64,000 bases of DNA from Argopecten irradians (Eukaryota; Mollusca; Bivalvia; Pectinida; Pectinidae): positions 2,600,001 through 2,664,000 of the forward strand of contig NC_091134.1 of NCBI RefSeq assembly GCF_041381155.1. Reading direction: 5' to 3'. Position numbers and translations under genes: made by a program. Of this stretch, positions 2,678-43,491 are shown piece after piece; the first letter of the stretch is position 1; every line of letters starts with the position of its first letter. The notes beneath the pieces were generated by a model. It had not been told where the DNA came from. It saw only the letters and a list, made by a program, of their open reading frames with translations, and did no database searches.

Positions 2678-2716
2678 AAATGACCCTGGCTTTTAATAGG
2701 ACGTTAAACTTAAAAA
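2678..2716 (+). repeat. SINE tail fragment
   Basis: The text 'aaatgaccctggctttt' followed by 'aataggacgttaaact' matches the 3' tail of the tRNA-derived SINE found whole at 42292-42529. The head is absent, so this is a 5'-truncated remnant. Confidence 0.6.
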
Positions 2717-6929: not shown

Positions 6930-6931
6930 AG

Positions 6932-7950: not shown

Positions 7951-7955
7951 TAAAG

Positions 7956-8110: not shown

Positions 8111-8124
8111 TAATTTTGCAATAT

Positions 8125-8893: not shown

Positions 8894-9042
8894 GCCACTT
8901 GTGTCAGTAAGGTTGAGAGCCACAGTGTAAGAGATAGGCCTAACAAAAAACCCAGAAATTATATGAATATACAAAATATTTCAAAGTATCATTTTTATTA
9001 AAACATGAAGTCACGCGCAATACTTCGGCGAGTTGCATTGAT

Positions 9043-9540
9043 CAGAAACATATATACATAGAGATTGGCAACTTCGCCATTTTTACGACAGGCAGATGTA
9101 CCTCTATATGTCCTTAGGGGCTTTTAGACAAACTCTTAAATAGTTAAATACAGCAGAATAACTTTGATATGTATGTAAAAGTTAAGTAATTTTCAGATGG
9201 TTTGAGTACAATTTTGGAAAGAAAAAATAATATTTTAACTTATATATTAATAAAACAAAATGCACTTTCGTTTTTGAATGCCTGATTTTCGAAAAACCAG
9301 GTAAAATTGCTCATTTTCATACTTTCAAAAATCATATTAAATAACATCAATTGGGAAAACTGATCACATCAAACCATGATATAATGTTTAAACTTTGTGT
9401 TGATGCAAAAATATCATGTTTAAAGGAATACACTTAAAAGTGGTTAGCCAAGGGAAAATGTCTATAAACTGGAGGTCCCTCTATGCCTGTCAACATAGAC
9501 AAAGAAGGAGTTTCCAATCTCTATGTATGTATGTTTCTGC
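9043..9540. mobile_element. MITE with CAGAAACATA terminal inverted repeats
   Basis: The left end CAGAAACATATATACATA and then 'gagattggcaact' pair with the right end, which reverse-complements to CAGAAACATACATACATA and then 'gagattggaaact'. Similarity extends through 'gacaggca' further in. The ~500-bp interior is AT-rich and non-coding. It lies about 300 bp upstream of the NOP2 promoter region. Confidence 0.65.
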
Positions 9541-9769
9541 AGTGATGGACAGCTGGCGAACCGTCAAGGAGCCACTAGGGTAAAAGGGGAGTAACTCTTA
9601 CTGCGATAGATCAGTCGGTTTCTATAACATCCATCACTTGTTTCTATAACTTTAAATGGAGCTCATTAGCTTCCACTACTGTACATATAAACAATATCTA
9701 CAGAATTATCCAAATATGAAAAATGTGGCATAGTTAGTTTGCGTTACGCATCTATTTTGCGACATTACA

Positions 9770-9814
9770 CCGGAAGTTGACACACTTTTCGGTAGCTGTT
9801 TTTCTAAACACGTG
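9770..9814 (+). promoter_or_regulatory. NOP2 proximal promoter: ETS site and CACGTG E-box
   Basis: CCGGAAGT at 9770-9777 is a consensus ETS/GABP site, and CACGTG at 9809-9814 is a canonical Myc/Max-type E-box. Both lie 45-90 bases upstream of the NOP2 start. No TATA box is evident. ETS sites and E-boxes are usual in promoters of ribosome-biogenesis genes. An acceptor-like 'ctattttcag' ends two bases before the ATG, so a short 5' non-coding exon upstream is possible. Confidence 0.5.
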
Positions 9815-9857
9815 TGCTGAAAGTGTGCATCACTCAAAGTATTTACTATTTTCAGCG

Positions 9858-12800
9858 ATGGGGAGAAAAAGGGACCTGACGAACGTGGTAAAGTCGGGAC
9901 CTGGAAGGAAAACAAAGAAGCAGAAACCTCCACAGATCCCGAATGCTTTGAAGAATCTGAATGAAGATGAAGGTACTGGTTTCGTGATTAACATTCGTGG
10001 CATATCTAAAAGATTCAGTACAATATTTGTCATCATGTCTTCTTGAAGTAGTCTGCTACATGTACAATTAAGTGGCAGATAAGTGTTCTTAAAATACATA
10101 CTGTATACAGTCTATATATGTATATAGCTATTGTACCCAATAACAGGTCGAGAAGTCCTGATTTGGCTATTAACAACTTTATAAGCCCAACATGATAATT
10201 TGTAATTTGAAATACCTCTTTCAGAAAAGGTAAATGCCTTATAAGTGACAAAAAGCGTAAGTTATGGTAGGTAGTTATATGATCACTAGGTCCATCAATG
10301 AATACAATAAAACTCCTACATGTATCTCAATGTGTGATATTGGTATGGTATACAGGGGTTTCATTATCTTTCAGGAGAGGCAGTACAATTGCAATTTCAG
10401 GGGGTACTTTTCTATACTATCTGTATGCTATCAAATGTAATTTAGCCCAAATCAGGCGGTACCACAGCTAGGTTCAACCGGCAAAAAGTACTGGGTACCG
10501 CCTGTTATTGAAACCCCTGGGTATAGAGTGTATACATTTTGATATATAATTATATTATTTACCTTTTGTTTACAGATGATTCAGATAAGAAGTTATCCAG
10601 CAGACAGAAACAACGGTATTAATTTTGAACTTTAAACAGACAATGCATTCCACCCAATAAGTTGATAAGCTGCCAGGGCACGTACTTTTGCAAAACCATT
10701 ATTGCGCAAATTAATGCAATAAATCAATATGCAAAAGAAATTAAATAAAATAATATTTTTCATATTTCACTTTCAGTCTGCATTTAATTTGAGGTTAATG
10801 AAATATTAAGGCTTTAAAAGGGAGAGGAGTGCTTATTGGGTCGAATGCAGTATCTTATAAAATTTAATATTCTTTATCAAAGATGATTCACAGGTATTTG
10901 AAAAGTCTTTTAATTGTCCCAGTGCTAGATATAATAAACATAATTATCATCTTTCTCTTGCTATTATTTTAATTTGATATCTTTTGATCCATTTTTTGGT
11001 TGTTAAAAGCTACAATAATACTTACATCAAGGGATCTGTAACAGTTGCCAAGCACATATGGTTAAGGCTGTTCATCAATGTTTCCCCTTAGATGTCAATT
11101 TGCTGTCATAAGCATGAAGTCAAAACATGAATGTAATGTGTAATATTTCTTGTATACTTGTTCTTGTAAATACCTGTAAATTTCGTTTCACTTGATTTTA
11201 CAATTATTTTAAATGGTTTACAGTGCAAAGAAAAGGTTACAGAAGCAACAGGAAAAGATAGAAATAAAGAAAAAGAAACAGGAAGAAAAGCTACAACAAA
11301 AATTAAAAAAGGATAGTAACAAACCTGGAAAGTTTGCTAGGGCCCCAGTTGTCAAAAAGAAAAGAAAGATGGAAGAAAGTGAAACTGAAAGTGAGGAGGA
11401 AAGTGATGATGAGGATGACGAAGAAGATGACGAAGGTAAGCTAATATGACATTAAAAGTTGCATCCACCTTTTCATTACTGGAAAAATTACTTGTCAATG
11501 AACCATCAGGTAACAAATTTTCATATCTTTACTACAACATTTATTGGCTGGGATAGTTTGAGGGATTTGTTTTTACAATTTAATATTTAAAGTTTTTATA
11601 TGTAAACTTATTAAGTTATTATACTGTCAAATTTTAAGGATGCAGAATAAATGTTCTTACATATTTAAAAAACAAAACTAGACTATTGAATATCAAATGG
11701 AATCATTTCCATCAGAAAAAATAAATCCACAGGATTAATAAGTGATTAAGGTAATTGTAAGCCTTTTAATTCAGACGAGATTTTAAGTGTTTTATGATAG
11801 CTATTGTAGAGACCCAGTGTAATAGTATGATGTAAAATTTGCAGAGGAAAGCGATGAAGAGGAGACTAAGCCTGTCAAAGGTTACTCTGATGATAACAAA
11901 GCCTGGTTAAAGCCATCGTCTAAAAAGGCCTTGATGGATTCAGATGAGGTAGGTCAACCTGTTGTTTTACTGAGGATTCAATAAGGATTTCTCTGCTCCT
12001 TCTACCGTTACCTGTAACCATAATGAAATACATACAGGACACTGGAAACCTCCGCCATAAATTTATTTTTCTTTTGTATTGGATAAGTCCTTGACAAACA
12101 GTTTCTATTACAGACAGTGGATATTATGATGACATTATGTAAGGCCCATATTATAAAGTTATGTATGGTTTCAGCCTACTACCTAGAAACTGAATGTTCC
12201 AGAAATTAAGGTGTCAGGAAATTCTAACACTAGCCCACCACTGTACCACTCCACAAAAGGGTTTCTTCAAAAACCAAAACCTTGTGTCCTTAAATTGTCA
12301 CTGCTTTTACTAACAAGAAGGGAGAATATTACAAACAAATTAAACATGGTTATCTTCTGTCATTTATCCCATCTACACCACCGCAGGAGACAGTAATTAC
12401 TTTTACTAAAAATCTAGTTTTTATAATAAAATTTATTTGTTTGTCAGTCAGAGGAGGAGGAGGAGGAGGATGACGAGGATGCGGAGAGTGATGGTGTGGG
12501 AGGCGATGACTTGCACGATTTGGGTGTATCATCATCAGATGATGATGAAGGTGAAGAAAGCAGCGAGGAAAGTGGGGATGAAGATGTAAGTAAAATAAAC
12601 ATAAAAAAATATCTGCCTGTCTCAAAAAAATATCTACCTGTCTCAAGGACTGCTATTCCTTACTTTTATCTTTATGTAATTTAGAACATTGATTCCTAAA
12701 ACTTAAGTCCTTTGGTAGGGTAAAGGTTTTATTGGAATAGCCAATATCCTATCTACAGAGGGGCTGCGGTGGTTGAGAACTTAACATGTGCTGATATATT

Positions 12801-15800
12801 ATTACAAGCTCTCCACATTTTGGTTACAAATTCAAATTCCATGTGGAGCAGTTGCCTGGTATCAATATATTGCTTCAATAAAGATTTAAACTATGAAAAT
12901 GGTGATTAATTTTTCATGCAAATTGTTTTAATATTTTAATTTTATAAATTTTGTGTATTATATCATAGTTGTTTTTATTTTTTCAGTTATTGCCTGTTGA
13001 GAAGAAAGCAAAAAAACTGAAAAAGAAGAAAGAGGAAATTAAGTAAAGAAGTTTGCAAAACTAAAACCAGATTGTTGATTTATAAGTGATTGGAATCAGT
13101 TTCATTTTCAACAGTGATAATAATATATATTATAATCAGTTTTCAAACTTTGCAATCAATTATATTTTTAATAATAGGTCTGAAAATAAGTGTACATTTC
13201 AAGTGTTGGTTAACTTATGTGCATAGCCTTATATATATACATCTATTTGAAAATGATACATTTGTACTACAGTAGTTACCCACAGTATCATTAACACTCT
13301 TATCCGTGTTCAAAAACTCTTGAATTTACAACTTTTAACTGTCTACCAGAAATGGATGAGATGACTCTGGATTTATTGGCTTACTCTCTGATATGTGTTT
13401 TTCAGAAAACAAGCGGAAGCTGAACTTCTAACCAACATGACTAACATGGAGAAGTTTACACTTCCAAGTGGGCAAGAAGTGGAGAAGGAAAATATCCTTT
13501 ATCAGGACCACATGGTCTGTGTGGGCTGTGGTCATAAACAGATATATCACACACTAGGAAAGTCTTGCACCAAGATATCCTTTATCAGGACCACATGGTC
13601 TGTGTGGGCTGTGGTCATAAACAGATATATCACACACTAGGAAAGTCTTACACAAAATATCCTTTATCAGGTCCACAATTGTCATAATCTGTGTGGGCTG
13701 TGGTCATAAACAGATATATCACACACTAGGAAAGTCTTACACCAGGGCTGCGGAAACATTTTGAAATGTACTCGTCCGTTCGGACAAGTGCTTCATCACA
13801 ATCTACTCGTCCGAATGACATTTTTACTTGTCCGCAATATTTGTCAGATAAATAAGTAGATGTGACTGTAAATATTAGCCTACAGCGGTTTTAGATATAT
13901 CCATTTGATTGTTAGAACTGTATTGATGCCGATTCGGGATAACATGACTAACAGACAGTTTTACAAGAAGACCGACAAAACATTTAATTCCCAAACAATT
14001 TTGTATGCAAGTGTTATAAAAAAGATATCTTTTTAAAGGGTCGATATTTTAACTTACTTTCCAATGTAGTAGATATATATATTATTTTTAACTCCATTAG
14101 CTTACTGGTAAGATTTTTTTAGGCGAATGTCGCTAAAAAACTGAAGCAAATTTCGCTGTGACATCTTGTTTTTCGATACACCTCTAGACTCTTGATTACG
14201 ATATCAATAGACCTCGGATTTATTAATGTTACAATGCTTTACATGCGCATGCGCATTGAAAACAAAAGTCGGGAATTCCTAGAATGATGCAGAAAACGAA
14301 AGCTTATCATTTCTTCGTCGTATTTTTAAGAAACTGTTACGAATGTCAGACCCTATATAAATTTACCGAGAAACGATATAATTAATAAGGTGTAGGTCAT
14401 ATAGTCATTGTCAGAATTTTTCACTCGTCCGACGGACAAGCGTGATGTCAACATTCACTCGTCCGATGGCCAAATCCACTCGTCTAGACGAGCGGACGAG
14501 TACTTTTCCCCAGCCCTGTACACAAGATATCCTTTATCAGGACCACATGGTCTGTGTGGGCTGTGGTCATAAACACATATATCACACACTAGGAAAGTTT
14601 GACACCAAGATATCCTTTATCAGGACCACATGGTCTGTGTGGGCTGTGGTCATAAACACATATATCACACACTAGGAAAGTTTGACACCAAGATATCCTT
14701 TATCAGGACCACATGGTCTGTGTGGGCTGTGGTCATAAACAGATATATCACACACTAGGAAAGTCTTACACCAAGATATCCTTTATCAGGACCACATGGT
14801 CTGTGTGGGCTGTGGTCATAAACAGATATATCACACACTAGGAAAGTCTTACACAAGATATCCTTTATCAGGACCACATGGCCTGTGTGGGCTGTGGTCA
14901 TAAACAGATATATCACACACTAGGAAAGTCTTACACAAGATATCCTTTATCAGGACCACATGGTCTGTGTGGGCTGTGGTCATAAACAGACACACACTAG
15001 GAAAGCCTTGCACCAAGATATCCTTTATCAGGACCACATGGTCTGTGTTTGCTGTGGTCATAAACAGATATATCACACACTAGGAAAGTCTTACACAAGA
15101 TATCCTTTATCAGGACCACATGGCCTGTGTGGGCTGTGGTCATATACAGATATATCACACACTAGGAAAGTCTTACACAAGATACCCTTTATTAGGACCA
15201 CATGGTCTGTGTGGGCTGTGGTCATAAACCGATATATCACACACTAGGAAAGTCTTACACCAAGATATCCTTTATCAGGACCACATGGTCTGTGCGGGCT
15301 GTGGTCATAAACAGACATACACTAGGAAAGTCTGACACAAGATATCTGTTATAAGGACCACATGGCCTGTGTGGGCTGTGGTCATAAGCAGGTATATCAC
15401 ACACTAGGAAAGTCTTACACCAAGATATCCTTTATCAGGACCACATGGTCTGTGTGGGCTGTGGTCATATACAGATATGTCACACACTAGGAAAGTCTTA
15501 CACCAAGATATCCTTTATGAGGACCATATGGCCTCTATGGGCTGTCATAAAGAGATATATCACACACTAGGAAAGTCTGACAACAAGATAAAATTACAAA
15601 AGACAGTTATTGAATGTTATTGAATGTGATACTGTTAAAGCAAGGAAGTTAATTTGATCATTAGTTTGAATTCCAGTGACCATTGTAGTCAAACATTCTC
15701 AAACACCACCTGTCTGTTATGTGGAAAACATCAGTTGTTCAGCTTTTTTAGATCACCTATAGACAAAATCTTTAGTGACTTATTCTAAGCGTCTTTTTGA

Positions 15801-18800
15801 AAGGAAATGAGTCCAGCTTTACTAGAATTATTAGCCTGAGATAGCATTTTAACATCATCTCCAAATGGCTGTCACAAGGTTTTCTGCAAAGATTGTGAAT
15901 TTCATGAACCCAGGGTCTCAGATTTGCCCCTTTGAAGTGGGTCAAAGTTACTAGTAGATGTATATTTAGGGAAAACACATTTATGAGCATTATTTGGTCA
16001 ATTTTCATATTGTTGTTGACCTTGACCCCTGAGTACCTGCCCAGGCACCTGATATAGCAATGGTACAACAGAGGATCAAGGAAGTGATTCATGTCCTGGC
16101 AGAGTTCAAGGATCGACGCGAGCCTGGAAGGTAATTTTAAAATATGTCTTAATCCTAGAATTCCAAATAATGGCAAATCTTTAAATGATTATCCCCATTT
16201 GTCCAAACAAACATAAAACTAAACTGTGAACCTAAATACCAATCTTTTGAATATCATGATTTCAGGTCTCGCCAGGAATATTTACGACAGCTGAGGGCCG
16301 ATTTCTGTACTTACTACAGTTACAATGAATACCTTATGGAGAAAATAATGACCTTATTTCCTCTAGAGGTAAGTTGACAGAGCCAGTCTGACACTATTAT
16401 ACTATTCTACAATGTTCTAGTACTCAATGTGTACAATCGTTTAAGAACATGGTTGTTTATATGAAAGGAAGTAAAATAACTTTTTAATTTTTAGGTCACC
16501 TGAGAGAAAGTTTCAAATGACCTATTCTAATCTCCTTTTGTACGTTGTCATCCGTATTCTAATCTCCTTTTGTACGTTGTCATCCGTCATATGTCCGTAA
16601 ATAATTGACATTTTCTACTTCTTCTCCAAAACCGCCGAAGCATTTTCAAAGAAATTTTGCAAAAACCTTTTAAGGCATAAGACCAATTAAAATTGTGAAT
16701 TATATGGTCCCCACCCCCCAGGGGGCTGTGGGAGGGGCCAAACCGGGTTAAATTTACTAGAATTTCAATAATTTTCTCCACTCACAGATGTGGTGGAATC
16801 AAATACTCTTCATAGATAGAAAGGTCTTAAGGTCTTTTACAAAAATTGTGAATTATATGACCCTGGGGTCGCACGTTTCCACCTCTAGAGGGGGTCAATT
16901 TAGTATAGTTTATTTACTTTTAGGGAAAACACATTTTTGAGCATTTTTCAGTAATTTGTAATAGGAAATAAGTCAAACTTTGTTAGAACTATTAGCCTGA
17001 GATATCATTTTAACACCATATCCATATTGGTCCTGACCGACCCCCAGTGTCCAGAGGGGTAGATCCAAAATGGGTCTGAAGGGCTAGAATTTCAAAAATC
17101 CTAGAATTTTTATAAGAAAACTCATTTATTAGCATTATTTGCTCAATTTTCATAGAAAACGAGTCAAACTTGGTTAGAATTATTAGTCTGAGAAATAGCA
17201 TTTAAACTTATCCATATTGGTCCTGGCAAAGCGTGGCAAACAGAGTAAAAATAATTAAGATTAAAGAAAAATCTTCTTCTGAATTCACAGATTTCATGGA
17301 ATCAAATGTACTCATCATGAATTAAAAGGTCAAAGTTATAAAATCACTGACTGGCTACAAGGGCCTGACGGGCCAATATATTCCATTTAATCCATTTATA
17401 TGTATTTGTTTCCTTCTGTATCCAAACTCAGGTGACTGTTAAGGCCAATGGGCCTCTTGTATAAATAATAAATTTTTAAAATATCGGAAAATCATCTTAA
17501 TATCAATGTAATCTTACAACCTGTTCAAAACAAAGTCCTCTTGCACTTGATTATGACTAAAACAAAGTAAGAAATACTTTTTATATATGACCTAACAATA
17601 ATTCACTATTAGATAAACTTTTTACCTTTCAGGTTCAAGAGTTTCTGGAGGCCAATGAAGTACCAAGACCTGTGACCATCAGAACTAATACACTGAAGAC
17701 TCGTAGGCGAGATCTCGCTCAGGTGACAATTACCGCTTTAAATCTGAATTAGTTCCATCACCATCTCATTCTCATATCCCATATCACAACCACTGAAAAA
17801 GGCTTGAAAAAATATTTAAAGATTTCTTTAGATCAAAGTAATTAATTTATCCTTTGTACTTAAAAACTGTTCCTTGGGTAGGCTGAAGGATAAATATAGA
17901 ATCGTTAAGGATACCGTTCTGTAATTTCAGGCTTTGATCAACAGAGGAGTTAACCTCGACCCGATCGGGAAGTGGTCCAAAGTCGGATTGATAGTATTTG
18001 ATACACAAGTACCACTAGGTAAGAATGACTGAAGATTAAAGTGGCATTCATTTACCAGTGGATGATTAAAGGTTTATAACGACAAAGTCATGATTATAAA
18101 ATGTAGTAATTTTCATTCCCCATCAAGGTGCCTATAGGATATCTGTGTATAGTGAATTGATTTTGTTGATTCCCAGAGATTTGTTATAATCATGTTTTAC
18201 CGTAGATACGTAGTGTATGACCACAAAAAAATAAGAAATGGTAACCAATCTTTTGGGGAATACATTGAAATCTCTGAACATCTCGGTCTGTTAGTGAATT
18301 TATCAGGATAGTTCTCATAGTTACAGTATCTGCAGATGTTTGTGATCATATGCTCTTTATATTAAGTATTTAAATTTGAATTCAAGCTCTCATGTAAAAT
18401 TACACAAAACTTTGTTTCCACATATGACACATTTCACCTTGTCCTTGTGTATGTAACATTTCACCTTGACCTTGTGTATGTAACATTTCCCCTTGACCTT
18501 GTATGTAACATTTCACCTTGACCTTGTGTATTTAACATTTCCCCTTGACCTTGTATGTAACATTTCACCTTGACCTGGTGTATTTAACATTTCACTTTGA
18601 CCTTGTGTTTGTAACATTTCACCTTGACCTTGTGTTATGTAACATTTCACCTTGACCTTGTGTATGTAACATTTCACCTTGACCTTGTGTATGTAAATTT
18701 CATTTGACTTGTGTTGTAACACACTTTGACCTTGTGTATGTAACATTTCACTTTGACCTTGTGATGTAACATTTCACTTTGACCTTGTGTATTTAACATT

Positions 18801-21800
18801 TCACTTTGACCTTGTGTTATGTAACATTTCACTTTGACCTTGTGTATGTTACATTTCACCTTGACCTTGTGTATGTAACATTTCACCTTGACCTTGTATG
18901 TAACATTTCACCTTGACCTTGTATGTAACATTTCACTTTGACCTTGTGTTTATAACATATCACTTTGACCTTGTGTATGTAAAATTTCATCTTGACCTTG
19001 TGTATGTAGGAGCGACCCCGGAGTACCTGGCTGGACATTACATCCTACAGGGAGGCTCCAGTTTCCTGCCCGTCATGGCTCTCGCCCCACAGGAGAATGA
19101 GAGAATACTGGACATGGCGTCAGCCCCGGGGGGGAAAACCACATACATAGGTCAGTATCATATGGCAGTGTTTGAGTTTTCAGAAAATATCAATTTGGTA
19201 TCATGTAAAGAAATCAAATGAGAAAAGTGGTAAATGACATCAAATCTTGATGTAGTTTGGTTGGCCTTTCTAAAGAAAAACCACTGATCTATGGTCAGTG
19301 CTAGGCAACTGACTGACCCATTTTGGTTTCCAGCTTTAAATCGAGCGATAGTGGTAGAATACCGTTGAAGCAAATGTCATAAACACTCAGCCACTACAGT
19401 CCGCCGGTGGTGTACTTAAATGTTGGACACCTCAACCAGTTGACAACCTTAGAGGCCTTACACAATTTTAGTACTCCATAGGCTTACAGTTCTAGTTCAC
19501 AATTTCAATACAAACAGACACACTGAACAGAATATTGTAGATCCAGTTCCAATGTCCGTCTTGTCCTGTTCCGTCATGCCACTTCATGTCCTGTTCTATC
19601 CTGTTACATTACATTACATCCTGTAGCATCTCATTAAGATGTCTTGCAGATATTGTTTTAAATATAAAGATGTTTACATTTATTTACAGCTGCGTTGATG
19701 AAGAATACTGGGACATTATTTGCCAATGATGCTAATGCTGACCGGGCCAAAGCCATCGTAGGGAACATTCATAGAATGGGTATTACCAACACCATTGTGT
19801 GTCATCACGATGGACGTGTGTTCCCAAAGGTAAGCTTCTTTTGCCACTCAAGTTATTGATATAGTGTAACTTCCCAAAACCGATCCCTCTCAAAACTGAT
19901 CCTTCTCAAAACCGATCCTTCTAAAAACTGATCCTCCTCAAACCTATCCCCTCTTAAAACCAAGCACGGATGTGATGTAGGGAATAAATTCTCTTTATTT
20001 ATAGTAAATAAAACTAACCAAAATAGATTCCTTCCAAATCCGAATACTAGACCAATTTTGAGATCGGAATAGTCAAATTAAACTAAAAAAAACACTTATG
20101 AAAACCGTCCTTATATGAGCGACGCCAATGGCATGAGGTCTGATAAACTAATAAATCGACCCAAGTCTATAGCTATCGCATGCTATGCCAAGGGGTGTGT
20201 TCACAGGTGTGAAGGCTATTGAGGTGATGTCATTATTTAATCATGACTATTGTTTAGATATTTAACGAATTGAAGCATGGGACATAATACACATGTATAG
20301 TGTGTACCCTTTTTGGGCTTGTAGAGTAAACCACAAAGTTGAAGCGATAAGTAAACTGTATATATAGGTCAGTGCAGACGAGAACATCCCCAAGAACATT
20401 CACGCAACTAATTACATTCATAAATGGTAACAAAGTCAAGATTGTTGTTTTCCATTCATTTTAAACATATAATTCTCTCTAAATTCTATCAATTAGTTGT
20501 AACGGATATTAGGCACATGCATATGGTTAAACATGCCGTCTAATGTAGAATACAAGTTCTGCTCAATTAAATCTCTGTCATGATGATCAATATTCAGTTC
20601 ACTTCTCCAAACTGAACCCTCTGTAAACCGGCCAAAATTCTATGCACCAACCACATTCAGTTTAGGAAAGTTCCACTATTGTTTGTACAGTGTAACTGGT
20701 CTGAAGCAGATATCACTGGGACCAGAATATTTGGCCGATATAACCAGGTTTCTGGATTAAACAGGTTTTAATCACTATGGTTTAAGTAGTGATGGTGACA
20801 GGCGGCTGGAGAATTCAACATTCTAAAGTTCAAGCAACATGACTGCAAAAGATGGAATCATACATTTCATGTGGATCATATTATGTGATTAAACTTTTCA
20901 CCAGTCTTTTACCAACATCTTAAATCGTTTTAATTGTGTGTTGTAGATTATGAAGGGTTTTGACAGAGTTCTACTGGACGCACCTTGCAGTGGAACTGGA
21001 GTTATTTCAAAGGATGTTGAAGTCAAAATAAATAAGGTGATCATCCACTAGTGAATTATACATAATTCTGAATTATTAAACAAAAACTGTAGTAAACACC
21101 TATTGTAGATATATGTTAATTATACTGTGAATAACTGTGTTAAGTAATTTCAGTATGTGACACAATAACGTTGACCATAAAGGTGTGAAAGTAAGATGAA
21201 AGTAAGAAATGTAATAAGAATTGAATAGAAACTGGTGATAATTTGAAAATATTCAAGAGCATTTTTTTGCTAATTTGTTATGATGCATCTTTTATTTCAT
21301 TTTGATATGCAATTTTTGGATAATAAATCAAGTAATTTGATAGCATTCATTAGGCAATCAGTACCTAAGGTTAGTAAATCAACCTCATTTCAAGGGAGAT
21401 AACTGAGATTATTATAATTTCATTTTAGGATGAGAAGGACATCCTACGCTGTGCACATCTACAGAAAGAATTATTGTTATCGGCCATAGACTGCTGTGAT
21501 GCTAACTCTAAGACTGGCGGATACCTGGTTTACTCAACATGTTCTGTTCTGGTATGCTTCCACCTTCCAATTTTTTATTTGTATCTGCCCTTGCGGTTAT
21601 ATAACAGATTTATCTGCCATTGCGGATGTGTATTGATGTGTGAAGTTATTTGTTTGCGAAAATTATCGTTAAGGTAATACTTTTCATCAAAAAAGACGTT
21701 CATAAAATAATGACATCACAATGGATACCTACCCAGGAGATAACTCTGTAATATGCATAGACAGAATAATTGTTTGTTAAATTCAATGATGTTCTGTACT

Positions 21801-24800
21801 GAAACGTTGAATACAGAAAATATAAACTCTAATCTTATGTTTCTTTCCTTGTAATAGATGCCATTATTTCACTAAGATATCTATAAATGAATAATAAATT
21901 ATACATGTTGTTTAATCTGATGGGTAGACTCTAACAGGGAGTTGAAAGTGGCCAGAATCAATCATATTCTTTAAGTAAATTATTTTTCAACTGCACAGTA
22001 GCTTAAGTATTCTTGTGATATAAATGTTTTTATTTTTATCTAGACTGAGGAGAAATGTATAATTATGATATAAATGTTCCTTTTTTTATCTAGACTGAGG
22101 AGAAATGTATAATTATGATATAAATGTTCCTTTTTTTATCTAGACTGAGGAGAAATGTATAATTATAATATAAACGTTGGTATTTTTATCGAGACTGAGG
22201 AGAAATGTATAATTATGATATAAATGTTCGTATTTTTATCTAGACTGAGGAGAAATGTATAATTATGATATAACCGTTGGTATTTTTATCTAGACTGTGG
22301 AGAAATGTATAATTATGATATAAACGTTTTGGTATTTTTATCTAGACTGAGGAGAAATGTATAATTATGATATAAATGTTTGTATTTTTATCTAGACTGA
22401 GTAGAAATGTATAATTATGATATAAATGTTCCTATTTTTACCTAGACTGAGGAGAATGAGGCTGTGATCGAGTATGCGTTGAAAAAACGGAATGTGAAGC
22501 TCGTCCCAACAGGTCTTGACTTCGGCCGAGAAGGATTTGTAAAGTATGTTTTATTTGTTTCTCTTTATTTAGGAGGTGGTCTGTAATAAACGTGTATTCC
22601 TCAGCATTCTGTTACCTTAAACTCATGGGGGGCAGTTTTCTTGTATTAACCATAGCGTGATGGGTCTTTCTTTGAATACTCCAGATATGGTCTACCACCA
22701 AAACCGGACTATTCTATGGTGGCATATTCCTGCTACCACTTATATTTAGCAAGATGATTATCTTGCCAAAGTTATCACGATAATTTGTCTTATCCTGATA
22801 ATTGTGTCGAATTATTGTGATAATTATGTTGACTTGTTTAATGATAATCAAGATGATTTTTCTTGATGTTGTTAGTCAACATATCTTGCAATCTGATTAA
22901 AATACAGATCATTATTATCACTACGTTGGATAAGAGGATCTGAGAACATCCCATTAGGGGTCACGTCAAGATGACCTTTTGAAATTGCCAATCAAATTGG
23001 CATTGCCAGAATCTTGGCTGGGGACGAAATAGTTTGAAAAAGCTGTCCAAAATATTTTCGTGTATGTAGTCATCTCGCCCGAAGTGCACAACAAAGCTAA
23101 TTGTATATGTATACTGGGACGAAAAGACGTTTTCAATTGCTGTTGTAAGGTGTAGAAAACGCATTTGCTCTGAAATACACGTGGTATTAAGGTCATCTGG
23201 ACGTGGCCCCTTATGGGATATTGTCAGATCCTCTATTGAACGGAATGGTTATAAGGATCTGTGTTTTAATCAGATTGCATATCTTGATGACTAAATTGAT
23301 TTATTGCATTAGTTAACTTGCTAAGGCGATATATTTCAATAAATATCTTGCTTCCTGTTTCAGATTTAGTTTGATGGCCTGTTCAGCCATGTCATACGGC
23401 CATGTCATAAATATTGTAAGACACATGTGTAATAACTATGATGAAGTTATATGTAAATAAACTAAATTTGACGTCATAATCTATATATGACGTCATATGG
23501 TTGTCTTAGTAGATGGAAACGTCACATACGAGCTAGATTTCTACTGTTTTACAGAGACAAAATCAAAATTTTCACTTACATTTCTATAATTAAAAGTTAT
23601 GTGATAAATAGAGTCTTACACTCGTTACTATGTGATTTATCAAACTCGTTAAATAATTTAATATGCCACTAGCCTAAAGGCTCATGCCATATCAAATTAT
23701 TGAACTGGTTTGATAAATTTCGTATCACATAGCTACTCATGTAACATTCTCTATATCTATGCTGCCTTAACAAGATAACTAACACAATAAGTCGACCTAT
23801 TATGATAAGTTTGGCGAGATACCGTATTCGACCTAATAAGCGCTCATGTCCCTATAAGCACCCCTCCCCCTTTATGAGGCCTCGATTTCAATTGGCCAGG
23901 CATAAATTAAGACCAAAACTACACAAAAATGTTAGTACATATACATGCATATTATGCAGGTTAACACCATGGCATGCTATGTAATGTTTTATATATGATG
24001 TAACATAAGGTACAACTTGATGTTTTAAGTATTGTGAATGAATGCGTATGCAAGTGTTTGTGTGATGGTGTCCATTTATATATACTGTGTAAAATGTTTG
24101 AAAATAAAAAATTAAAAAAAAAAAAAAAACTACACAAAAATGTATAGATTTGCAATACAATTTCGTTCTTTTAGCACCTTTTCATTCTTTTCATTTTGTA
24201 TATGCCCTGGGCGCTTGTTGGGTCGAATACGGTAATTATGGTGAAATGTCGCCTAATTTTTCACGATAGGTTGATTTGATTATCACGACAAATCAACATG
24301 TACAGTATATTGGTCTTACTAATAAGCAGGCAGATATTTTATCTACCGGTAGTTATATCATCATCGTCACTGCCCATCACCTTCTGTATGTGTTTTACAG
24401 TTGTATAAATATATCCACCTTCTGTACGTGTTTTACAGTTGTATAAATATATCCACCTTCTGTATGTGTTTTACAGTTGTATAAATATATCCACCTTCTG
24501 TATGTGTTTTACAGTTGTATAAATATATCCACCTTCTGTATGTGTTTTACAGTTGTATAAATATATCCACCTTCTGTATGTGTTTTACGGGTGTATAAAT
24601 ATATCCACCTTCTGTACGTGTTTTACAGTTGTATAAATATATCCACCTTCTGTATGTGTTTTACAGTTGTATAAATATATCCACCTTCTGTATGTGTTTT
24701 ACAGTTGTATAAATATATCCACCTTCTGTAGTGTTTTACAGTTGTATAAATATATCCACCTTCTGTATGTGTTTTACAGGTGTATAAATATATCCACCTT

Positions 24801-27800
24801 CTGTATGTGTTTTACAGGTGTATAAATATATCCACCTTCTGTACGTGTTTTACAGGTGTATAAATATATCCACCTTCTGTATGTGTTTTACAGGTGTATA
24901 AATATATCCACCTTCTGTATGTGTTTTACAGTTGTATAAATATATCCACCTTCTGTATGTGTTTTACAGGTGTATAAATATATCCACCTTCTGTATGTGT
25001 TTTACAGGTGTATAAATATATCCACCTTCTGTATGTGTTTTACAGGTGTATAAATATATCCACCTTCTGTACGTGTTTTACAGTTGTATAAATATATCCA
25101 CCTTCTGTATGTGTTTTACAGGTGTATAAATATATCCACCTTCTGTACGTGTTTTACAGGTGTATAAATATATCCACCTTCTGTACGTGTTTTACAGTTG
25201 TATAAATATATCCACCTTCTGTAGTTTTACAGGTGTATAAATATATCCACCTTCTGTATGTGTTTTACAGGTGTATAAATATATCCACCTTCTGTACTGT
25301 GTTTTACAGGTGTATAAATATATCCACCTTCTGTATGTGTTTTACAGGTGTATAAATATATCCACCTTCTGTATGTGTTTTACAGGTGTATAAAATATAT
25401 ATATCCACCTTCTGTATGTGTTTTACAGGTGTAATAAATATATCCACCTTCTGTACTGTGTTTTACAGGTGTATAAATATATCCACCTTCTGTATGTGTT
25501 TTACAGTTGTATAAATATATCCACCTTCTGTATGTGTTTTGTGTTTTACAGGTGTATAAATATATCCACCTTCTGTATGTGTTTTACAGTGTATAAATAT
25601 ATCCACCTTCTGTATGTGTTTTTACAGGTGTATAAATATATCCACCTTCTGTATGTGTTTTACAGTTGTATAAATATATCCACCTTCTGTATGTGTTTTA
25701 CAGGTGTATAAATATATCCACCTTCTGTATGTGTTTTACAGGTGTATAAATATATCCACCTTCTGTACGTGTTTTACAGGTGTATAAATATATCCACCTT
25801 CTGTATGTGTTTTACAGGTGTATAAATATATCCACCTTCTGTACGTGTTTTACAGGTGTATAAATATATCCACCTTCTGTACGTGTTTTACAGGTGTATA
25901 AATATATCCACCTTCTGTATGTGTTTTTACAGTTGTATAAATATATCCACCTTCTGTATGTGTTTTACAGTTGTATAAATATATCCACCTTCTGTACGTG
26001 TTTTACAGTTGTATAAATATATCCACCTTCTGTATGTGTTTTACAGATGTATAAATATATCCACCTTCTGTACGTGTTTTACAGTTGTATAAATATATCC
26101 ACCTTCTGTATGTGTTTTTACAGTTGTATAAATATATCCACCTTCTGTACGTGTTTTACAGTTGTATAAATATATCCACCTTCTGTACGTGTGTTTTACA
26201 GGTGTATAAATATATCCACCTTCTGTATGTGTTTTACAGTTGTATAAATATATCCACCTTCTGTACGTGTTTTACGGGTGTATAAATATATCCACCTTCT
26301 GTACGTGTTTTACAGTTGTATAAATATATCCACCTTCTGTATGTGTTTTACAGGTGTATAAATATATCCACCTTCTGTATGTGTTTTTACAGGTGTATAA
26401 ATATATCCACCTTCTGTACATGTTTTACAGGTGTATAAATATATCCACCTTCTGTACGTGTTTTACAGGTGTATAAATATATCCACCTTCTGTACGTGTT
26501 TTTTACAGGTGTATAAATATATCCACCTTCTGTATGTGTTTTACAGTTGTATAAATATATCCACCTTCTGTATGTGTTTTTACAGTTGTATAAATATATC
26601 CACCTTCTGTACGTGTTTTACAGTTGTATAAATATATCCACCTTCTGTATGTGTTTTACAGGTGTATAAATATATCCACCTTCTGTACGTGTTTTACAGG
26701 TGTATAAATATATCCACCTTCTGTACGTGTTTTACAGGTGTATAAATATATCCACCTTCTGTACGTGTTTTACAGGTGTATAAATATATCCACCTTCTGT
26801 ACGTGTTTTACAGGTGTATAAATATATCCACCTTCTGTATGTGTTTTACAGGTGTATAAATATATCCACCTTCTGTACATGTTTTACAGGTGTATAAATA
26901 TATCCACCTTCTGTACGTGTTTTACAGGTGTATAAATATATCCACCTTCTGTATGTGTTTTACAGGTGTATAAATATATCCACCTTCTGTACGTGTTTTA
27001 CAGTTGTATAAATATATCCACCTTCTGTATGTGTTTTACAGGTGTATAAATATATCCACCTTCTGTACGTGTTTTACAGGTGTATAAATATATCCACCTT
27101 CTGTATGTGTTTTACAGGTGTATAAATATATCCACCTTCTGTACAGGTGTTTTACAGTGTTTGTATAAATATATCCACCTTCTGTATGTGTTTTACAGTT
27201 GTATAAATATATCCACCTTCTGTACGTGTTTTACAGGTGTATAAATATATCCACCTTCTGTATGTGTTTTACAGTTGTATAAAATATATCCACCTTCTGT
27301 ATGTGTTTTACAGTTGTATAAATATATCCACCTTCTGTACATGTTTTACAGGTGTATAAATATATCCACCTTCTGTACGTGTTTTTACAGGTGTATAAAT
27401 ATATCCACCTTCTGTATGTGTTTTACAGGTGTATAAATATATCCACCTTCTGTATGTGTTTTACAGTTGTATAAATATATCCACCTTCTGTATGTGTTTT
27501 ACACTTGTATAAATATATCCACCTTCTGTATGTGTTTTACAGGTGTATAAATATATCCACCTTCTGTACGTGTTTTACAGGTGTATAAATATATCCACCT
27601 TCTGTATGTGTTTTACAGGTGTATAAATATATCCACCTTCTGTATGTGTTTTACAGGTGTATAAATATATCCACCTTCTGTACGTGTTTTACAGGTGTAT
27701 AAATATATCCACCTTCTGTACGTGTTTTACAGGTGTATAAATATATCCACCTTCTGTACGTGTTTTACAGTTGTATAAATATATCCACCTTCTGTATGTG

Positions 27801-30733
27801 TTTTACAGTATGTATAAATATATCCACCTTCTGTACGTGTTTTACAGTTGTATAAATATATCCACCTTCTGTATGTGTTTTACAGATGTGTATAAATATA
27901 TCCACCTTCTGTACGTGTTTTTTACAGTTGTATAAATATATCCACCTTCTGTACGTGTTTTACAGTTGTATAAATATATCCACCTTCTGTACGTGTTTTA
28001 CAGTTGTATAAATATATCCACCTTCTGTACGTGTTTTACAGGTGTATAAATATATCCACCTTCTGTATGTGTTTTACAGTTGTATAAATATATCCACCTT
28101 CTGTACGTGTTTTACAGGTGTATAAATATATCCACCTTCTGTACGTGTTTTACAGTTGTATAAATATATCCACCTTCTGTATGTGTTTTACAGTTGTATA
28201 AATATATCCACCTTCTGTATGTGTTTTACAGTTGTATAAATATATCCACCTTCTGTATGTGTTTTACAGTTGTATAAATATATCCACCTTCTGTATGTGT
28301 TTTACAGGTGTATAAATATATCCACCTTCTGTACGTGTTTTACAGGTGTATAAATATATCCACCTTCTGTAAGTGTTTTACAGTTGTATGTATAAATATA
28401 TCCACCTTCTGTATGTGTTTTACAGGTGTATAAATATATCCACCTTCTGTATGTGTTTTACAGGTGTATAAATATATCCACCTTCTGTATGTGTTTTACA
28501 GGTGTATAAATATATCCACCTTCTGTACGTGTTTTACAGGTGTATAAATATATCCAGTGTTTTACAGTTGTATAAATATATCCACCTTCTGTATGTGTTT
28601 TACAGGTGTATAAATATATCCACCTTCTGTACGTGTTTTACAGGTGTATAAATATATCCACCTTCTGTATGTGTTTTACAGGTGTATAAATATATCCACC
28701 TTCTGTACGTGTTTTACAGTTGTATAAATATATCCACCTTCTGTATGTGTTTTACACTTGTATAAATATATCCACCTTCTGTATGTGTTTTACACTTGTA
28801 TAAATATATCCACCTTCTGTATGTGTTTTACAGTTGTATAAATATATCCACCTTCTGTATGTGTTTTTTACAGGTGTATAAATATATCCACCTTCTGTAT
28901 GTGTTTTACAGGTGTATAAATATATCCACCTTCTGTATGTGTTTTACACTTGTATAAATATATCCACCTTCTGTATGTGTTTTACTATTGTATAAATATA
29001 TCCACCTTCTGTATGTGTTTTACAGTTGTATAAATATATCCACCTTCTGTATGTGTTTTACAGTTGTATAAATATATCCACCTTCTGTATGTGTTTTACA
29101 GGTGTATAAATATATCCACCTTCTGTATGTGTTTTACAGTTGTATAAATATATCCACCTTCTGTATGTGTTTTACAGTTGTATAAATATATCCACCTTCT
29201 GTACGTGTTTTACAGTTGTATAAATATATCCACCTTCTGTATGTGTTTTACAGTTGTATAAATATATCCACCTTCTGTATGTGTTTTACAGTTGTATAAA
29301 TATATCCACCTTCTGTATGTTTTACAGTTGTATAAATATATCCACCCTGTTGTGTTTTTACAGTGTATAATTATATCCACCTTCTGTAGTGTTTTACAGG
29401 TGTATAAATATATCCACCTTCTGTACGTGTTTTACAGGTGTATAAATATATCCACCTTCTGTAGTGTTTTACAGGTGTATAAATATATCCACCTTCTGTA
29501 TGTGTTTTACAGTGTATAAATATATCCACCTTCTGTATGTGTTTTACAGGTGTATAAATATATCCACCTTCTGTATGTGTTTTACAGTTGTATAAATATA
29601 ATCCACCTTCTGTACGTGTTTTACAGTTGTATAAATATATCCACCTTCTGTACGTGTTTTACAGGTGTATAAATATATCCACCTTCTGTACGTGTTTTAC
29701 AGGTGTATAAATATATCCACCTTCTGTATGTGTTTTACAGGTGTATAAATATATATCCACCTTCTGTACGTGTTTTACAGGTGTATAAATATATCCACTT
29801 TCTATCCCCAGTTTCCAGCAGCATCGTTTCCATCCTCATATGAAGCTAACCAGACGGTTCTACCCACATACACACAACATGGACGGGTTCTTCGTAGCAA
29901 AACTCAAGAAGTTTTCAAACAAAATTCCAGGAACAGGTAAGCCATACAGGCATTCACTCCTACTTGGCTTAGAAATTGCTGTTTTTATCGTAAAAAAATT
30001 GCAAATTTACTTATAACTTGATATATTAATCCTTTATGGTCATAATCAAGGCAACTGTATCTCATTTTGGTATTTGTTTGAAAATTGTTGATTTATGCCA
30101 CGACTTCTGAATTGTTGATGATACAGGCATTATGTAAAGCAAAGATGGCCCTTGCCCTCAGTGTCAAATGTCTATGAAATAACCCTAACTGATTTGGAGC
30201 ATGTTAGCTGAAACCATGATGCTGCAAGCTTTCAAGCATATTACCATGCTTCGTTACGGCATATGCTGCAAACAATTCTGTATGGAAGGGAGATAATAAA
30301 CATCATGGACTTCTAGATATAGGGACATGTTGTATACTTGAATCACACAAAGTCTTTAAGGTGCAGTTTTTCATGGTCATATAGAAGTCATGATCCAAAG
30401 ATCAGAGGTAAAATTAGCCAGGTTCAAATAAGTCCACTTAATGATTAAAATTCTACTTAATTAATAAAAAATAACTTCTTTATTATAGGTACTGTGGCTG
30501 ATGAGGAAACAGAAGAAGACAGCTCAAAGGTTACAGATCAGAATAGTTCAACTCAAAATACCAAACAAAGTGAAAATGTGAAACAGGATTCAGATAGTGA
30601 CAGTGATGAGGAAGAGGAGAAAGGAAAGTCAACTAAAAAAGACAAATCCAAAAATAAGTGGTTAGCAAAGAAGTCAAACAAAAAGCAATTTAAACCTGGA
30701 AAATTCAAGAAATTTAAATCTGGTGGAAAGTAA
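9858..30733 (+). CDS. NOP2: NOP2 (p120/NOL1), 25S/28S rRNA cytosine-C5 methyltransferase
   Basis: This nucleolar SAM-dependent enzyme methylates a conserved cytosine in large-subunit rRNA and is needed for 60S assembly. Coding exons: 9858-9972, 10576-10615, 11224-11435, 11845-11948, 12448-12585, 12987-13042, 13406-13491, 16037-16130, 16266-16368, 17633-17722, 17931-18018, 19010-19150, 19690-19829, 20947-21036, 21429-21551, 22446-22543, 29812-29936, 30489-30733. Phases agree throughout and total 695 codons plus stop. The start [18 protein letters not shown] is typical. An acidic/lysine-rich N-terminus (exons 3-6) precedes the NOP2 domain. Motif I reads [11 protein letters not shown] (~409-419), motif [10 protein letters not shown] (~479), and motif VI STCS (~536, second catalytic Cys). 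NMDGFF closes the domain and a K-rich tail ([14 protein letters not shown]) ends it. All introns are GT-AG except intron 7, which is AT-AC. Introns 7, 11, 15 and 16 contain splice-site-linked tandem arrays. Confidence 0.95.
10353..10519. mobile_element. Short hAT-like MITE in NOP2 intron 1
   Basis: CAGGGGTTTCAT at the left and 'tgaaacccctg' at the right are inverted repeats, and internal 'aggcggtacc'-type sequence is partly palindromic. GTATA precedes the element (10348-10352) and recurs at 10521-10525, one base after its end, suggesting a 5-bp duplication. 167 bp, non-coding. Confidence 0.6.
10640..10856. mobile_element. MITE of the ATTCGACCCAATAAGC family (NOP2 intron 2)
   Basis: The left end 'atgcattccacccaataag' and the right end 'cttattgggtcgaatgcag' are inverted repeats. 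The same terminal motif bounds the element at 23820-24234 in intron 16. Both copies are non-coding. Confidence 0.6.
12758..12895 (+). repeat. Degenerate tRNA-derived SINE (NOP2 intron 5)
   Basis: 'ggggctgcggtggttgagaa' resembles the tRNA-like head, 'ttacaagctctccacattt' resembles the linker seen in the array at 39211-39700, and 'caaattcaaattcc' resembles a B box. It is followed by 'gttgcctggtatcaatat' and an A-rich end. Diverged. Confidence 0.5.
13492..13500 (+). promoter_or_regulatory. U12-type (AT-AC) 5' splice site of NOP2 intron 7
   Basis: No GT donor fits after exon 7, but ATATCCTTT starts here, a perfect match to the minor-spliceosome AT-AC donor. It leaves exon 7 one base into a codon. 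With the AC acceptor at 16035-16036 this gives '[16 protein letters not shown]', which aligns with 'MEQDAQAPD' of human NOP2. Human p120 intron F is the textbook AT-AC intron, so this is a conserved U12 intron. Confidence 0.88.
13492..13742 (+). repeat. ~82-bp tandem array, first block (3 units), starting at the U12 donor
   Basis: Units begin ATATCCTTTATCAGGACCAC and continue through 'ggtctgtgtgggctgtggtc' and 'cacacactaggaaagtct'. Donor motifs stand at 13492 (the real one), 13575 and 13657. The exon 7 frame stays open across the first unit, then stops near 13640. The block is cut from the second block by the transposon at 13743-14518. Confidence 0.9.
13743..14518. mobile_element. Non-autonomous hAT-like element inside the U12-donor array
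   Basis: The left end CAGGGCTGCGGAAA and the right end (reverse complement CAGGGCTGGGGAAA) are inverted repeats. TACAC at 13738-13742 is repeated at 14519-14523, and joining the flanks restores the array unit 'gtcttacacaagatatcc', so the 5-bp duplication is secure. 776 bp with no transposase. Sub-terminal regions carry many copies of ACTCGTCCG and its complement, as at transposase-binding sites. Confidence 0.85.
14519..15600 (+). repeat. ~82-bp tandem array, second block (13 units)
   Basis: Units start at about 14527, 14610, 14693, 14776, 14858, 14940, 15018, 15100, 15182, 15265, 15342, 15425 and 15508. Eleven keep ATATCCTTT intact; those at 15182 and 15342 are changed. Lengths vary between 77 and 84 bp and units are highly similar. 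The whole block lies in NOP2 intron 7. Confidence 0.9.
15748..16010 (+). repeat. Truncated copy of the AGGTCACCTGAG interspersed repeat
   Basis: 'ttagatcacc' at the left and internal text such as 'attattagcctgagatagc', 'attgtgaatt' and 'agggaaaacacattt' match the fuller copy at 16489-17464. Similarity stops near 16010, only about 10 bases upstream of the U12 branch site of intron 7. Confidence 0.65.
16019..16036 (+). promoter_or_regulatory. U12 branch site and AC 3' splice site of NOP2 intron 7
   Basis: ACCTTGACCCC (from 16019) matches the minor-spliceosome branch consensus TTCCTTRACYCY, with the likely branch adenosine at 16025. The intron ends AC at 16035-16036, 11 bases downstream, inside the short window usual for U12 introns. 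Exon 8 then reads CTGCCCAGGCACCTGAT, giving 'AQAPD' in frame. Confidence 0.82.
16489..17464 (+). mobile_element. Interspersed repeat with AGGTCACCTGAG ends (NOP2 intron 9)
   Basis: The left end 'aggtcacctgag' and the right 'ctcaggtgac' are inverted, and the right end continues 'aaggccaatgggcctcttgt'. A 31-bp internal direct repeat ('attctaatctccttttgtac', then 'gttgtcatccgt') occurs twice at 16525-16586. No protein is encoded. I recall this as a very abundant bivalve family. It occupies most of intron 9. Confidence 0.6.
18429..19009 (+). repeat. ~27-bp tandem array ending in the exon 12 acceptor
   Basis: The unit is 'catttcaccttgaccttg' plus 'tgtatgtaa', in about 21 copies with slippage variants. 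Each contains CTTGACC, which fits a branch-site consensus. The final unit reads TGTATGTAG, and that AG is the acceptor of exon 12 (exon starts 19010). The other units end TAA at this place and so lack a usable AG. Confidence 0.88.
19867..19965 (+). repeat. Short ~17-bp tandem repeat (NOP2 intron 13)
   Basis: Five to six degenerate units of the type 'cttctcaaaaccgatc' are present. Related text ('ccaaactgaaccctctgtaa') occurs at 20607-20627, so the stretch may be the end of an interspersed element. Confidence 0.5.
22020..22445 (+). repeat. ~50-bp array duplicating the intron 15/exon 16 junction
   Basis: Each unit contains 'tatttttatctag' followed by 'actgaggagaaatgtataat' and 'tatgatataaatgtt'. 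The real junction is 'tttttacctag' then ACTGAGGAGAATGAG. Eight extra acceptors lie at about 22041, 22091, 22141, 22191, 22241, 22291, 22343 and 22393, all keeping AG. Use of an upstream copy would read T-E-E-K-C-I-I-M-I and then a stop, because the copies carry AAATG where the true exon has AATGAG. Confidence 0.92.
22889..23281. mobile_element. Foldback/MITE with ~90-bp inverted arms (NOP2 intron 16)
   Basis: 'tgcaatctgattaaaataca' to 'cacgtcaagatgacc' on the left matches, in reverse complement, 'ggtcatctggacgtgg' to 'gttttaatcagattgca' on the right with few mismatches. The ~210-bp spacer is non-coding. Confidence 0.7.
23820..24234. mobile_element. MITE, second copy of the ATTCGACC-AATAAGCGC family
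   Basis: 'accgtattcgacctaataag' then 'cgc' at the left, and 'gcgcttgttgggtcgaatac' then 'ggt' at the right, are inverted repeats. A TA precedes the left end and TAA follows the right, consistent with a TA duplication. It is related to the element at 10640-10856. Confidence 0.65.
24374..29800 (+). repeat. 38-bp satellite array of acceptor-like units (NOP2 intron 16)
   Basis: The unit is 'tgtataaatatatccacc' + 'ttctgtatgtgttttacag', with variants (tacg/tatg; cagg/cagt). About 5.4 kb gives roughly 140 copies with only occasional indels. Every unit resembles a 3' splice site: a pyrimidine-rich run, then TTTTACAG. Many continue GTGTAT, creating an AG|GT junction. The array stops at the real exon 17 acceptor, where the last partial unit reads 'tatccactttctatccccag'. 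Confidence 0.95.

Positions 30734-35401: not shown

Positions 35402-43491
<8,090 letters not shown>

What the first reader, a model, noticed from the sequence alone, without database searches (positions are those of the whole stretch)
13406..16130. NOP2 intron 7 is a U12-type AT-AC intron whose 5' splice site has been amplified into a tandem array
Seen: exon 7 has no GT donor, but ATATCCTTT stands at 13492, ACCTTGACCCC at 16019 and AC at 16035-16036, which joins phases and gives the conserved 'AQAPD'. Known: human p120/NOP2 intron F is the classic AT-AC intron. Seen: the same ATATCCTTT opens every ~82-bp unit, 16 copies in all, 14 intact. Inference: the minor spliceosome must choose the first of many identical donors. 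The next donor would shift the frame and later ones run into a stop near 13640. I know of no described array of U12 5' splice sites.
Basis: partly seen in the sequence, partly recalled or inferred. Interest (0 to 1): 0.93.

Follow-up and report, generated by a model that had tools for sequence, protein, structure and literature searches.

The report
Splice donor copied into tandem array
In a probably molluscan gene for the ribosome-building enzyme NOP2, the start signal of a rare kind of intron has been copied into a row of sixteen, a natural test of how the minor splicing machinery picks the right copy, though a similar row is known for the ordinary machinery.

Summary
The gene is NOP2 (human chain 8fkt, E 1.9e-36). 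The intron 13492-16036 is best read as U12-type AT-AC: donor ATATCCTTT, branch core CCTTGAC with its A 11 nt before the end, terminal AC. Of 26,082 donor-acceptor pairs 119 stay open; AT13492/AC16035 fits human NOP2 best, narrowly over AT-AG 16032. The donor opens an interrupted array of 16 units of about 83 bp, 14 with intact ATATCCTTT. Each of the 15 downstream donors leads to a premature stop.

The donor copies look passively carried: 3 changes in 135 positions versus 34 in 1022 (p=0.79). The array is one of seven tested in two genes (NOP2, spermidine synthase) whose ends lie 0-135 bp from a splice site (Fisher p=1e-6; 1.7e-5 without this one). One is nine copies of a major-class acceptor.

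'No described array' needs narrowing: the human ABCA7 VNTR is a donor-anchored array of the major class, and USSE elements are tandem U12 donors bound by U11 but not spliced. A long U12 donor array at a real exon looks like a new variant of a known kind. No RNA or cross-species test was possible.

The parts
13406..13491 (+). NOP2 exon upstream of the U12 intron (86 nt; ends GAA A, phase 1)
   Evidence: acceptor tgtgtttttcag|AAAA
13492..13500 (+). U12-type AT-AC donor ATATCCTTT, first copy, in phase with the downstream exon
   Evidence: 0 mismatches to RTATCCTTT; the 14 other NOP2 introns examined 2-6
13489..13744 (+). array units 1-3, ATATCCTTT at 13492, 13575, 13657
13743..14518 (+). insertion between units 3 and 4: ends CAGGGCTGCGGAAA / CAGGGCTGGGGAAAA in inverted orientation, flanked by TACAC on both sides; reads as a non-autonomous hAT-like DNA transposon (name recalled, not tested)
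   Evidence: ends printed; boundaries read by eye
14519..15590 (+). array units 4-16; motifs intact except 15182 (ATACCCTTT) and 15342 (ATATCTGTT)
16020..16026 (+). U12-type branch core CCTTGAC, branch A 11 nt before the intron end
   Evidence: 0 mismatches to CCTTRAY; the 14 other introns examined 1-3; on the full 9-mer 2 mismatches, which the intron at 29937 equals
16035..16036 (+). AC acceptor of the U12-type intron 13492-16036
16037..16130 (+). NOP2 exon downstream (CT GCC CAG GCA CCT, giving T A Q A P), GT donor follows
18429..19008 (+). 27-bp array whose end lies 1 bp from the last intron base; acceptor TGTATGTAG|GAGCG at 19009/19010
22016..22456 (+). 50-bp array: nine copies of a major-class acceptor (seven TATCTAG, one TATCGAG, the last TACCTAG) with exon start; only the last continues into the exon at 22446, the eight others meet a stop
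24378..29803 (+). 38-bp array (142 units by TRF, 135 TTTTACAG) ending 8 bp before the last base of the intron (acceptor 29811/29812)
36664..37210 (-). 60-bp array in a spermidine synthase intron; 29 bp from the acceptor by TRF, a partial copy seen by eye runs up to TATCTAG|GAGAGTGCC

Best explanation
This is the minor-class (U12, AT-AC) intron of NOP2, in which the first ~83 bases of the intron, beginning at its first base, were tandemly multiplied to 16 units. The start of the duplication can be placed in a three-base microhomology: ATA opens the intron, and ATA also follows the last unit. Each unit therefore carries a whole donor (14 of 16 still intact) and no exon bases. The array is a minisatellite. 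Its donor copies are carried along passively, with no sign of being kept or purged. Splicing is inferred to use mostly the copy joined to the exon, because that copy can pair across the 86-nt exon with the upstream acceptor. Occasional use of later copies would make transcripts with premature stops that decay removes. The same kind of process has amplified an acceptor elsewhere in this gene and placed arrays near other splice sites. Shown: intron class by sequence signals, array, copy number, junction sequences, frame consequences, substitution pattern. Inferred: which donor is used, exon pairing, NMD, and how the array grew.
For: Gene identity and junction: phmmer to human NOP2 8fkt E 1.9e-36. 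Exhaustive donor/acceptor test: 119 of 26,082 joins stay open; AT13492-AC16035 scores best (94), AT13492-AG16032 93, best GT-AG 86 with NILYQDHM inserted. Of the 15 NOP2 introns examined only this one has 0 donor mismatches (others 2-6) and 0 branch-core mismatches (others 1-3) (donor at 22544 re-read, 2 mismatches). Microhomology at the junction. No departure from neutrality: in copies 2-16, 3 of 135 donor positions changed vs 34 of 1022 others, p=0.79, five columns at the unit end being dropped for register slips; with all 83 columns 3/135 vs 46/1089, p=0.35. 22 of 74 nine-base stretches are intact in at least as many copies as the donor, itself included. All 15 alternative donors give a premature stop. 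Precedent for the choice rule: in ABCA7 the first two VNTR bases are the canonical donor; use of a second donor (one unit retained, out of frame) is about 2 +/- 1% and not changed by VNTR length, and PTC transcripts rise with cycloheximide (PMC5954066, passages and section 21). Generality.
Against: No RNA shows that the first donor is used. AT-AC scores only one point better than AT-AG at 16032, so the acceptor rests on the U12 signals and on human precedent. On the full 9-base branch consensus this intron has 2 mismatches and the intron at 29937 equals it. The neutrality test has low power: about 4-6 changes expected, 3 seen, and the rate is on the low side in both versions. A published P120 minigene with two competing U12 donors showed choice by subtype, but the text I read gives no outcome for two identical donors (PMC8280824 section 11). 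The fold of exon plus first unit is more stable than 199 of 200 shuffles (z -2.7) and pairs 6 of the 9 donor bases with the exon end, which would not favour the first copy; five single units folded alone show nothing (z -0.19 to 0.14). In ABCA7, longer arrays go with more skipping of the next exon and lower expression, so such an array may not be silent.
Confidence: 0.75

Rival explanations
1. USSE-like platform: the array of U12 donors recruits many U11/U12 di-snRNPs that are mostly not spliced but strengthen recognition of the upstream exon's acceptor, or make NOP2 output sensitive to the level of the minor spliceosome.
For: USSE elements in SNRNP48 and RNPC3 are tandem U12 donors that are bound by U11, not used as donors, and activate an upstream U2-type acceptor (PMC5473595 passages; PMC8329584 passages). 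Here 14 intact donors lie downstream of a U2-type acceptor, the first of them 86 nt from it.
Against: No significant excess conservation of the donor motif, with low power. USSEs were reported only in these two genes in the reviews seen (2019, 2021). An array of major-class acceptors in the same gene calls for no U12-specific cause.
Confidence: 0.12
2. Recursive (ratchet) splicing: most units end CAAG directly before ATATCC, so removing whole units would recreate the same donor and give the same mRNA.
For: Removal of unit 1 would regenerate GGAAA|ATATCCTTT (sequence).
Against: The best U12 branch-core matches in the 16 units have 2-4 mismatches; in 500 shuffles of unit 1 most (336) have 0-2, so the units are no better than shuffles; the 2-mismatch cases lie 7 or 30-35 nt from the unit end.
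Confidence: 0.03
3. The intron is major-class GT-AG and the ATATCCTTT match is incidental.
For: A GT13515-AG16043 join is in frame and scores 86 against human.
Against: It inserts NILYQDHM, its donor GTCTGTGTGG looks poor, and it leaves unexplained a perfect U12 donor, branch core and spacing at the conserved junction.
Confidence: 0.03
4. The unit is a dispersed satellite or element that happened to land at the exon end and supplied the donor.
For: Mollusc genomes are rich in such repeats (recalled).
Against: blastn (E 0.01) finds no copy elsewhere in the window; the donor equals the U12 consensus at a conserved junction; a 31-base unit pattern has 0 exact matches in viral contigs and genome contigs, which are collections of viruses and of bacteria and archaea, so this says little. 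The rest of this genome could not be searched.
Confidence: 0.07

Closest known systems
Human ABCA7 intron 18 VNTR (PMC5954066; abstract, passages and section 21 seen)
   Same: Tandem array whose first two bases are the canonical donor of the exon; unit not a multiple of three; use of a second donor gives a frameshift and a premature stop.
   Different: Major-class GT donor, 25-bp unit, about 12-427 units, polymorphic; here a U12-type AT-AC donor, ~83-bp units, and a transposon-like insertion inside.
[quoted passage not shown] passages seen)
   Same: Tandem repeat of U12-type donor sequences downstream of a U2-type acceptor.
   Different: USSE sites are not used as donors, lie in minor-spliceosome genes and are highly conserved; here the first copy is the inferred real donor and the copies look neutral.
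p120/NOP2 intron F, the model U12 AT-AC intron (PMC4980772 passages; PMC8280824 passages and section 11; PMC6717393 passages)
   Same: Same gene; a U12-type intron with CC at donor positions 5/6.
   Different: The human intron was picked as a model for its small size (quoted in PMC6717393); here the intron is 2545 bp because of array and insertion.

Membership tests
U12-type (minor) AT-AC intron | Donor close to RTATCCTTT | tested here: met
   ATATCCTTT, 0 mismatches; the 14 other introns examined 2-6. Consensus recalled.
U12-type (minor) AT-AC intron | Branch site close to TTCCTTRAY, roughly 10-16 nt from the 3' end | tested here: met
   core CCTTGAC 0 mismatches (others 1-3), full 9-mer 2 mismatches (equalled by the intron at 29937), branch A 11 nt from the end. 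Consensus and spacing range recalled.
U12-type (minor) AT-AC intron | Orthologous position in NOP2 | tested here: inconclusive
   The junction falls in VEKE-TAQAPD, aligned to human EMEQD-AQAPD; human exon ends were not available to compare base for base.
U12-type (minor) AT-AC intron | Excised by the minor spliceosome | not testable with these tools
   no RNA data
Donor-anchored VNTR (ABCA7 type) | Array begins at the first intron base and its units carry the donor | tested here: met
   14 of 16 donor motifs intact
Donor-anchored VNTR (ABCA7 type) | Length varies between individuals; second-donor transcripts are seen | not testable with these tools
   one assembly, no RNA
USSE | Tandem U12 donor sequences | tested here: met
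USSE | Lies in SNRNP48 or RNPC3 | tested here: not met
   gene is NOP2
USSE | Bound by U11 and not used as donors | not testable with these tools
   no RNA or binding data; the first copy is the only one of sixteen donors that gives an open frame
USSE | Donor copies conserved by selection | tested here: inconclusive
   3/135 vs 34/1022, p=0.79, or 3/135 vs 46/1089, p=0.35; within one array only, low power

The most novel reading that the evidence does not exclude
In this genome tandem amplification is drawn to splice sites: arrays start or end at or next to the exon-intron border, multiplying a minor-class donor (16 copies) and major-class acceptors (9 copies, and 135 acceptor-like TTTTACAG in another NOP2 intron). 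The spliceosome would then routinely have to tell the exon-joined copy from many near-identical neighbours, and exon borders would act as barriers where spreading arrays pile up.
Probability: 0.35. Interest if true: 0.72.

Novelty: new variant of a known kind. Interest (0 to 1): 0.52.

Why it matters
U12 donors are so constrained that minor introns are found largely by that motif. Fourteen identical intact donors in one intron would show that the motif is not enough and that position next to the exon decides. It gives a ready substrate for measuring donor choice by the minor spliceosome as a function of distance and copy number. The wider pattern, arrays lying at splice sites in two neighbouring genes, would be a testable rule about where minisatellites can grow in genes.

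Tried and rejected
RNA folding of five of the 16 units gave no structure beyond shuffles. The exon-plus-first-unit fold is stronger than 199 of 200 shuffles and pairs 6 of 9 donor bases with the exon end; I could not tie it to function. Recursive splicing was tested and not supported. A search for the unit in viral contigs and genome contigs gave 0 matches. Whole-genome search was impossible because no genome is held. Promoter scan, tRNA and Rfam gave nothing useful. In six Pfam scans of both strands of 30734-60735 spermidine synthase domains were the only families above cut-off; one weak FlgE match was below cut-off and disregarded. The stretches 1-9857 and 60736-64000 were not scanned.

Counts and dropped rows: the anchoring test used the 7 TRF loci with at least 3 copies inside introns of the two gene models, overlapping rows merged. 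The 5 two-copy loci in those introns show no effect (p=0.28), and all 12 together give 7e-6. Four loci with at least 3 copies outside these introns were not tested, for want of gene models: 8079-8111, 32290-33662, 44310-44340 (poly-A) and 46541-46706. The test was devised after seeing the arrays, so its p-values are optimistic. An earlier version with NOP2 alone gave 1.9e-6 on 5 arrays. Five end columns were dropped before the first neutrality count; the count with them is given beside it.

'U12-type' with 'minisatellite' and 'splice site' gave 0 papers; the others were seen as listings, most of them capped. Most subscription papers are not held, so absence there is weak.
Full report
WHAT IS THERE. 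The gene on the + strand between about 9.86 and 30.73 kb encodes NOP2. A peptide joined from four consecutive window exons matches human NOP2 (8fkt, E 1.9e-36) and three other NOP2-type chains, the only 4 distinct PDB sequences at E up to 0.001. The exon model from 11224 to the stop at 30733 reads cleanly once one exon end is set at 22543. The source is probably a mollusc: the motif CAAGGGAGATAAC, which I recall as common in molluscs, occurs near 21400 and in the array at 36693-37210. No tool named the species.

THE INTRON. Between the exon ending GAA A (13491) and the exon starting CT GCC CAG GCA CCT (16037) I tested every GT, GC or AT donor from 13440 to 15699 with every AG or AC acceptor from 15592 to 16084. 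Of 26,082 pairs, 119 stay in frame without a stop. The best against human NOP2 is AT13492-AC16035 (score 94), then AT13492-AG16032 (93), then two joins from AT13501 (91, 90), then the best GT-AG (86), which inserts NILYQDHM. The donor is a perfect ATATCCTTT, and CCTTGAC puts the branch A 11 nt before the end. Of the 15 NOP2 introns examined, the other 14 have 2-6 donor mismatches and 1-3 branch-core mismatches; on the full nine-base branch consensus this intron has 2 mismatches and the one at 29937 equals it (the donor there read one base off at 22543 is GTATGTTTT, 2 mismatches). By its signals this is a U12-type AT-AC intron. Human p120/NOP2 intron F is U12-dependent, a standard model, with CC at positions 5/6 of the donor (PMC4980772 passages; PMC8280824 section 11). 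Molluscs are reported to show relative minor-intron enrichment (PMC10639083 passage).

THE ARRAY. Sixteen units of 77-88 bp begin at 13492, 13575, 13657, 14527, 14610, 14693, 14776, 14858, 14940, 15018, 15100, 15182, 15265, 15342, 15425 and 15508. Fourteen keep ATATCCTTT. Mean pairwise divergence is 5.8%. A 776-bp insertion with inverted ends CAGGGCTG and a flanking TACAC on each side separates units 3 and 4, so I infer that the array is older than the insertion. blastn finds the unit nowhere else in the window. The last unit is followed by ATAAAATT and the first is preceded by GAAA, so the founding duplication can be placed inside a three-base ATA shared by the intron start and the sequence after the last unit. 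That would explain why each unit has the whole donor and no exon bases.

DO THE COPIES MATTER? In copies 2-16 the nine donor positions carry 3 changes in 135 and the others 34 in 1022 (p=0.79, five end columns dropped), or 46 in 1089 with all columns (p=0.35). 22 of 74 nine-base stretches, the donor included, are intact in at least 14 copies. So there is no sign that the copies are kept or purged, though power is low. With the corrected model, joining any of donors 2-16 to 16037 gives a premature stop: donor 13575 in the downstream exons, the other 14 at 13638, where intron retention stops too; donor 13492 reads open to the last codon.

WHICH DONOR. This cannot be seen without RNA. The closest measured case is human ABCA7: a 25-bp VNTR whose first two bases are the exon 18 donor, about 12 to 427 units. 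[quoted passage not shown] Neither changed with VNTR length, and PTC transcripts rose with cycloheximide; but skipping of the next exon rose and expression fell with length (PMC5954066, passages and section 21). I infer the same rule here: the exon-joined copy wins, with low leakage to decay. One result does not favour this: the predicted fold pairs 6 of 9 bases of the first donor with the exon end.

THE WIDER PATTERN. The same gene has a 50-bp array at 22016-22456 that is nine copies of an acceptor, including exon bases (TTTTTATCTAG|ACTGAGGAG and variants). Only the last runs on into the exon; the eight others meet a stop within ten codons. A 27-bp array ends 1 bp from an intron end at 19009, and a 38-bp array with 135 TTTTACAG ends 8 bp before another. 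The neighbouring minus-strand gene is spermidine synthase. Its 60-bp array lies 29 bp from an acceptor by TRF and by eye runs up to it; its other array is 135 bp away. Placing the seven arrays uniformly in their own introns gives Fisher p=1.1e-6, and 1.7e-5 without the array of the finding. By simulation 4 of 7 lie within 10 bp (p=3e-5), or 3 of 6 without this array (p=5e-4). The test was devised after the pattern was seen; five two-copy arrays do not show it (p=0.28); and four further loci were not tested. Still, it points to a process that is not special to the minor spliceosome.

WHAT IS KNOWN. Tandem repeats of U12 donors exist as USSE elements in SNRNP48 and RNPC3, bound by U11, not used as donors, activating an upstream acceptor (PMC5473595 passages; PMC3584512; PMC8329584; PMC6865273). 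Variable tandem repeats at exon-intron borders are described in human duplicated genes (PMC2812944 passages). A major-class donor array is ABCA7. In the listings of ten searches I saw no long U12 donor array at a functional exon. I therefore rate this a new variant of a known kind.

VERDICT. The surprise is smaller than claimed because close relatives exist, and the donor choice remains an inference. The more interesting lead is that arrays in this region lie at splice sites in general.

Noticed in passing
22016-22456: Nine tandem copies of a major-class acceptor with exon start; the eight upstream copies meet a stop within ten codons. The mirror image of the finding, in the same gene.
   Followed up: partly
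18429-19009: 27-bp array (22 copies by TRF) runs to the acceptor of the GATPEYLAG exon; most units carry TTGACC, similar to part of a U12 branch core, although the intron's donor is GTAAGAATG.
   Followed up: partly
24378-29803: 142-unit 38-bp array with 135 TTTTACAG, 74 of them followed by GT, in the NOP2 intron ending at 29811.
   Followed up: partly
35846-43404 (- strand): Spermidine synthase gene: seven modelled exons give an open protein, last exon end uncertain; its 60-bp array lies at the acceptor at 36664.
   Followed up: yes
39221-39740: 60-bp array whose unit holds TGGCCGAGTGGTTAAG, resembling the start of a tRNA gene (recalled); ARAGORN finds no tRNA in the window.
   Followed up: partly
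13743-14518: Insertion with CAGGGCTG inverted ends and a flanking TACAC on each side, hAT-like by recall, inside the donor array.
   Followed up: partly
9858-11224: The first NOP2 exon reaches the exon at 11224 in phase only through a weak donor at 10037; a small exon may be missing between them (read by eye).
   Followed up: no
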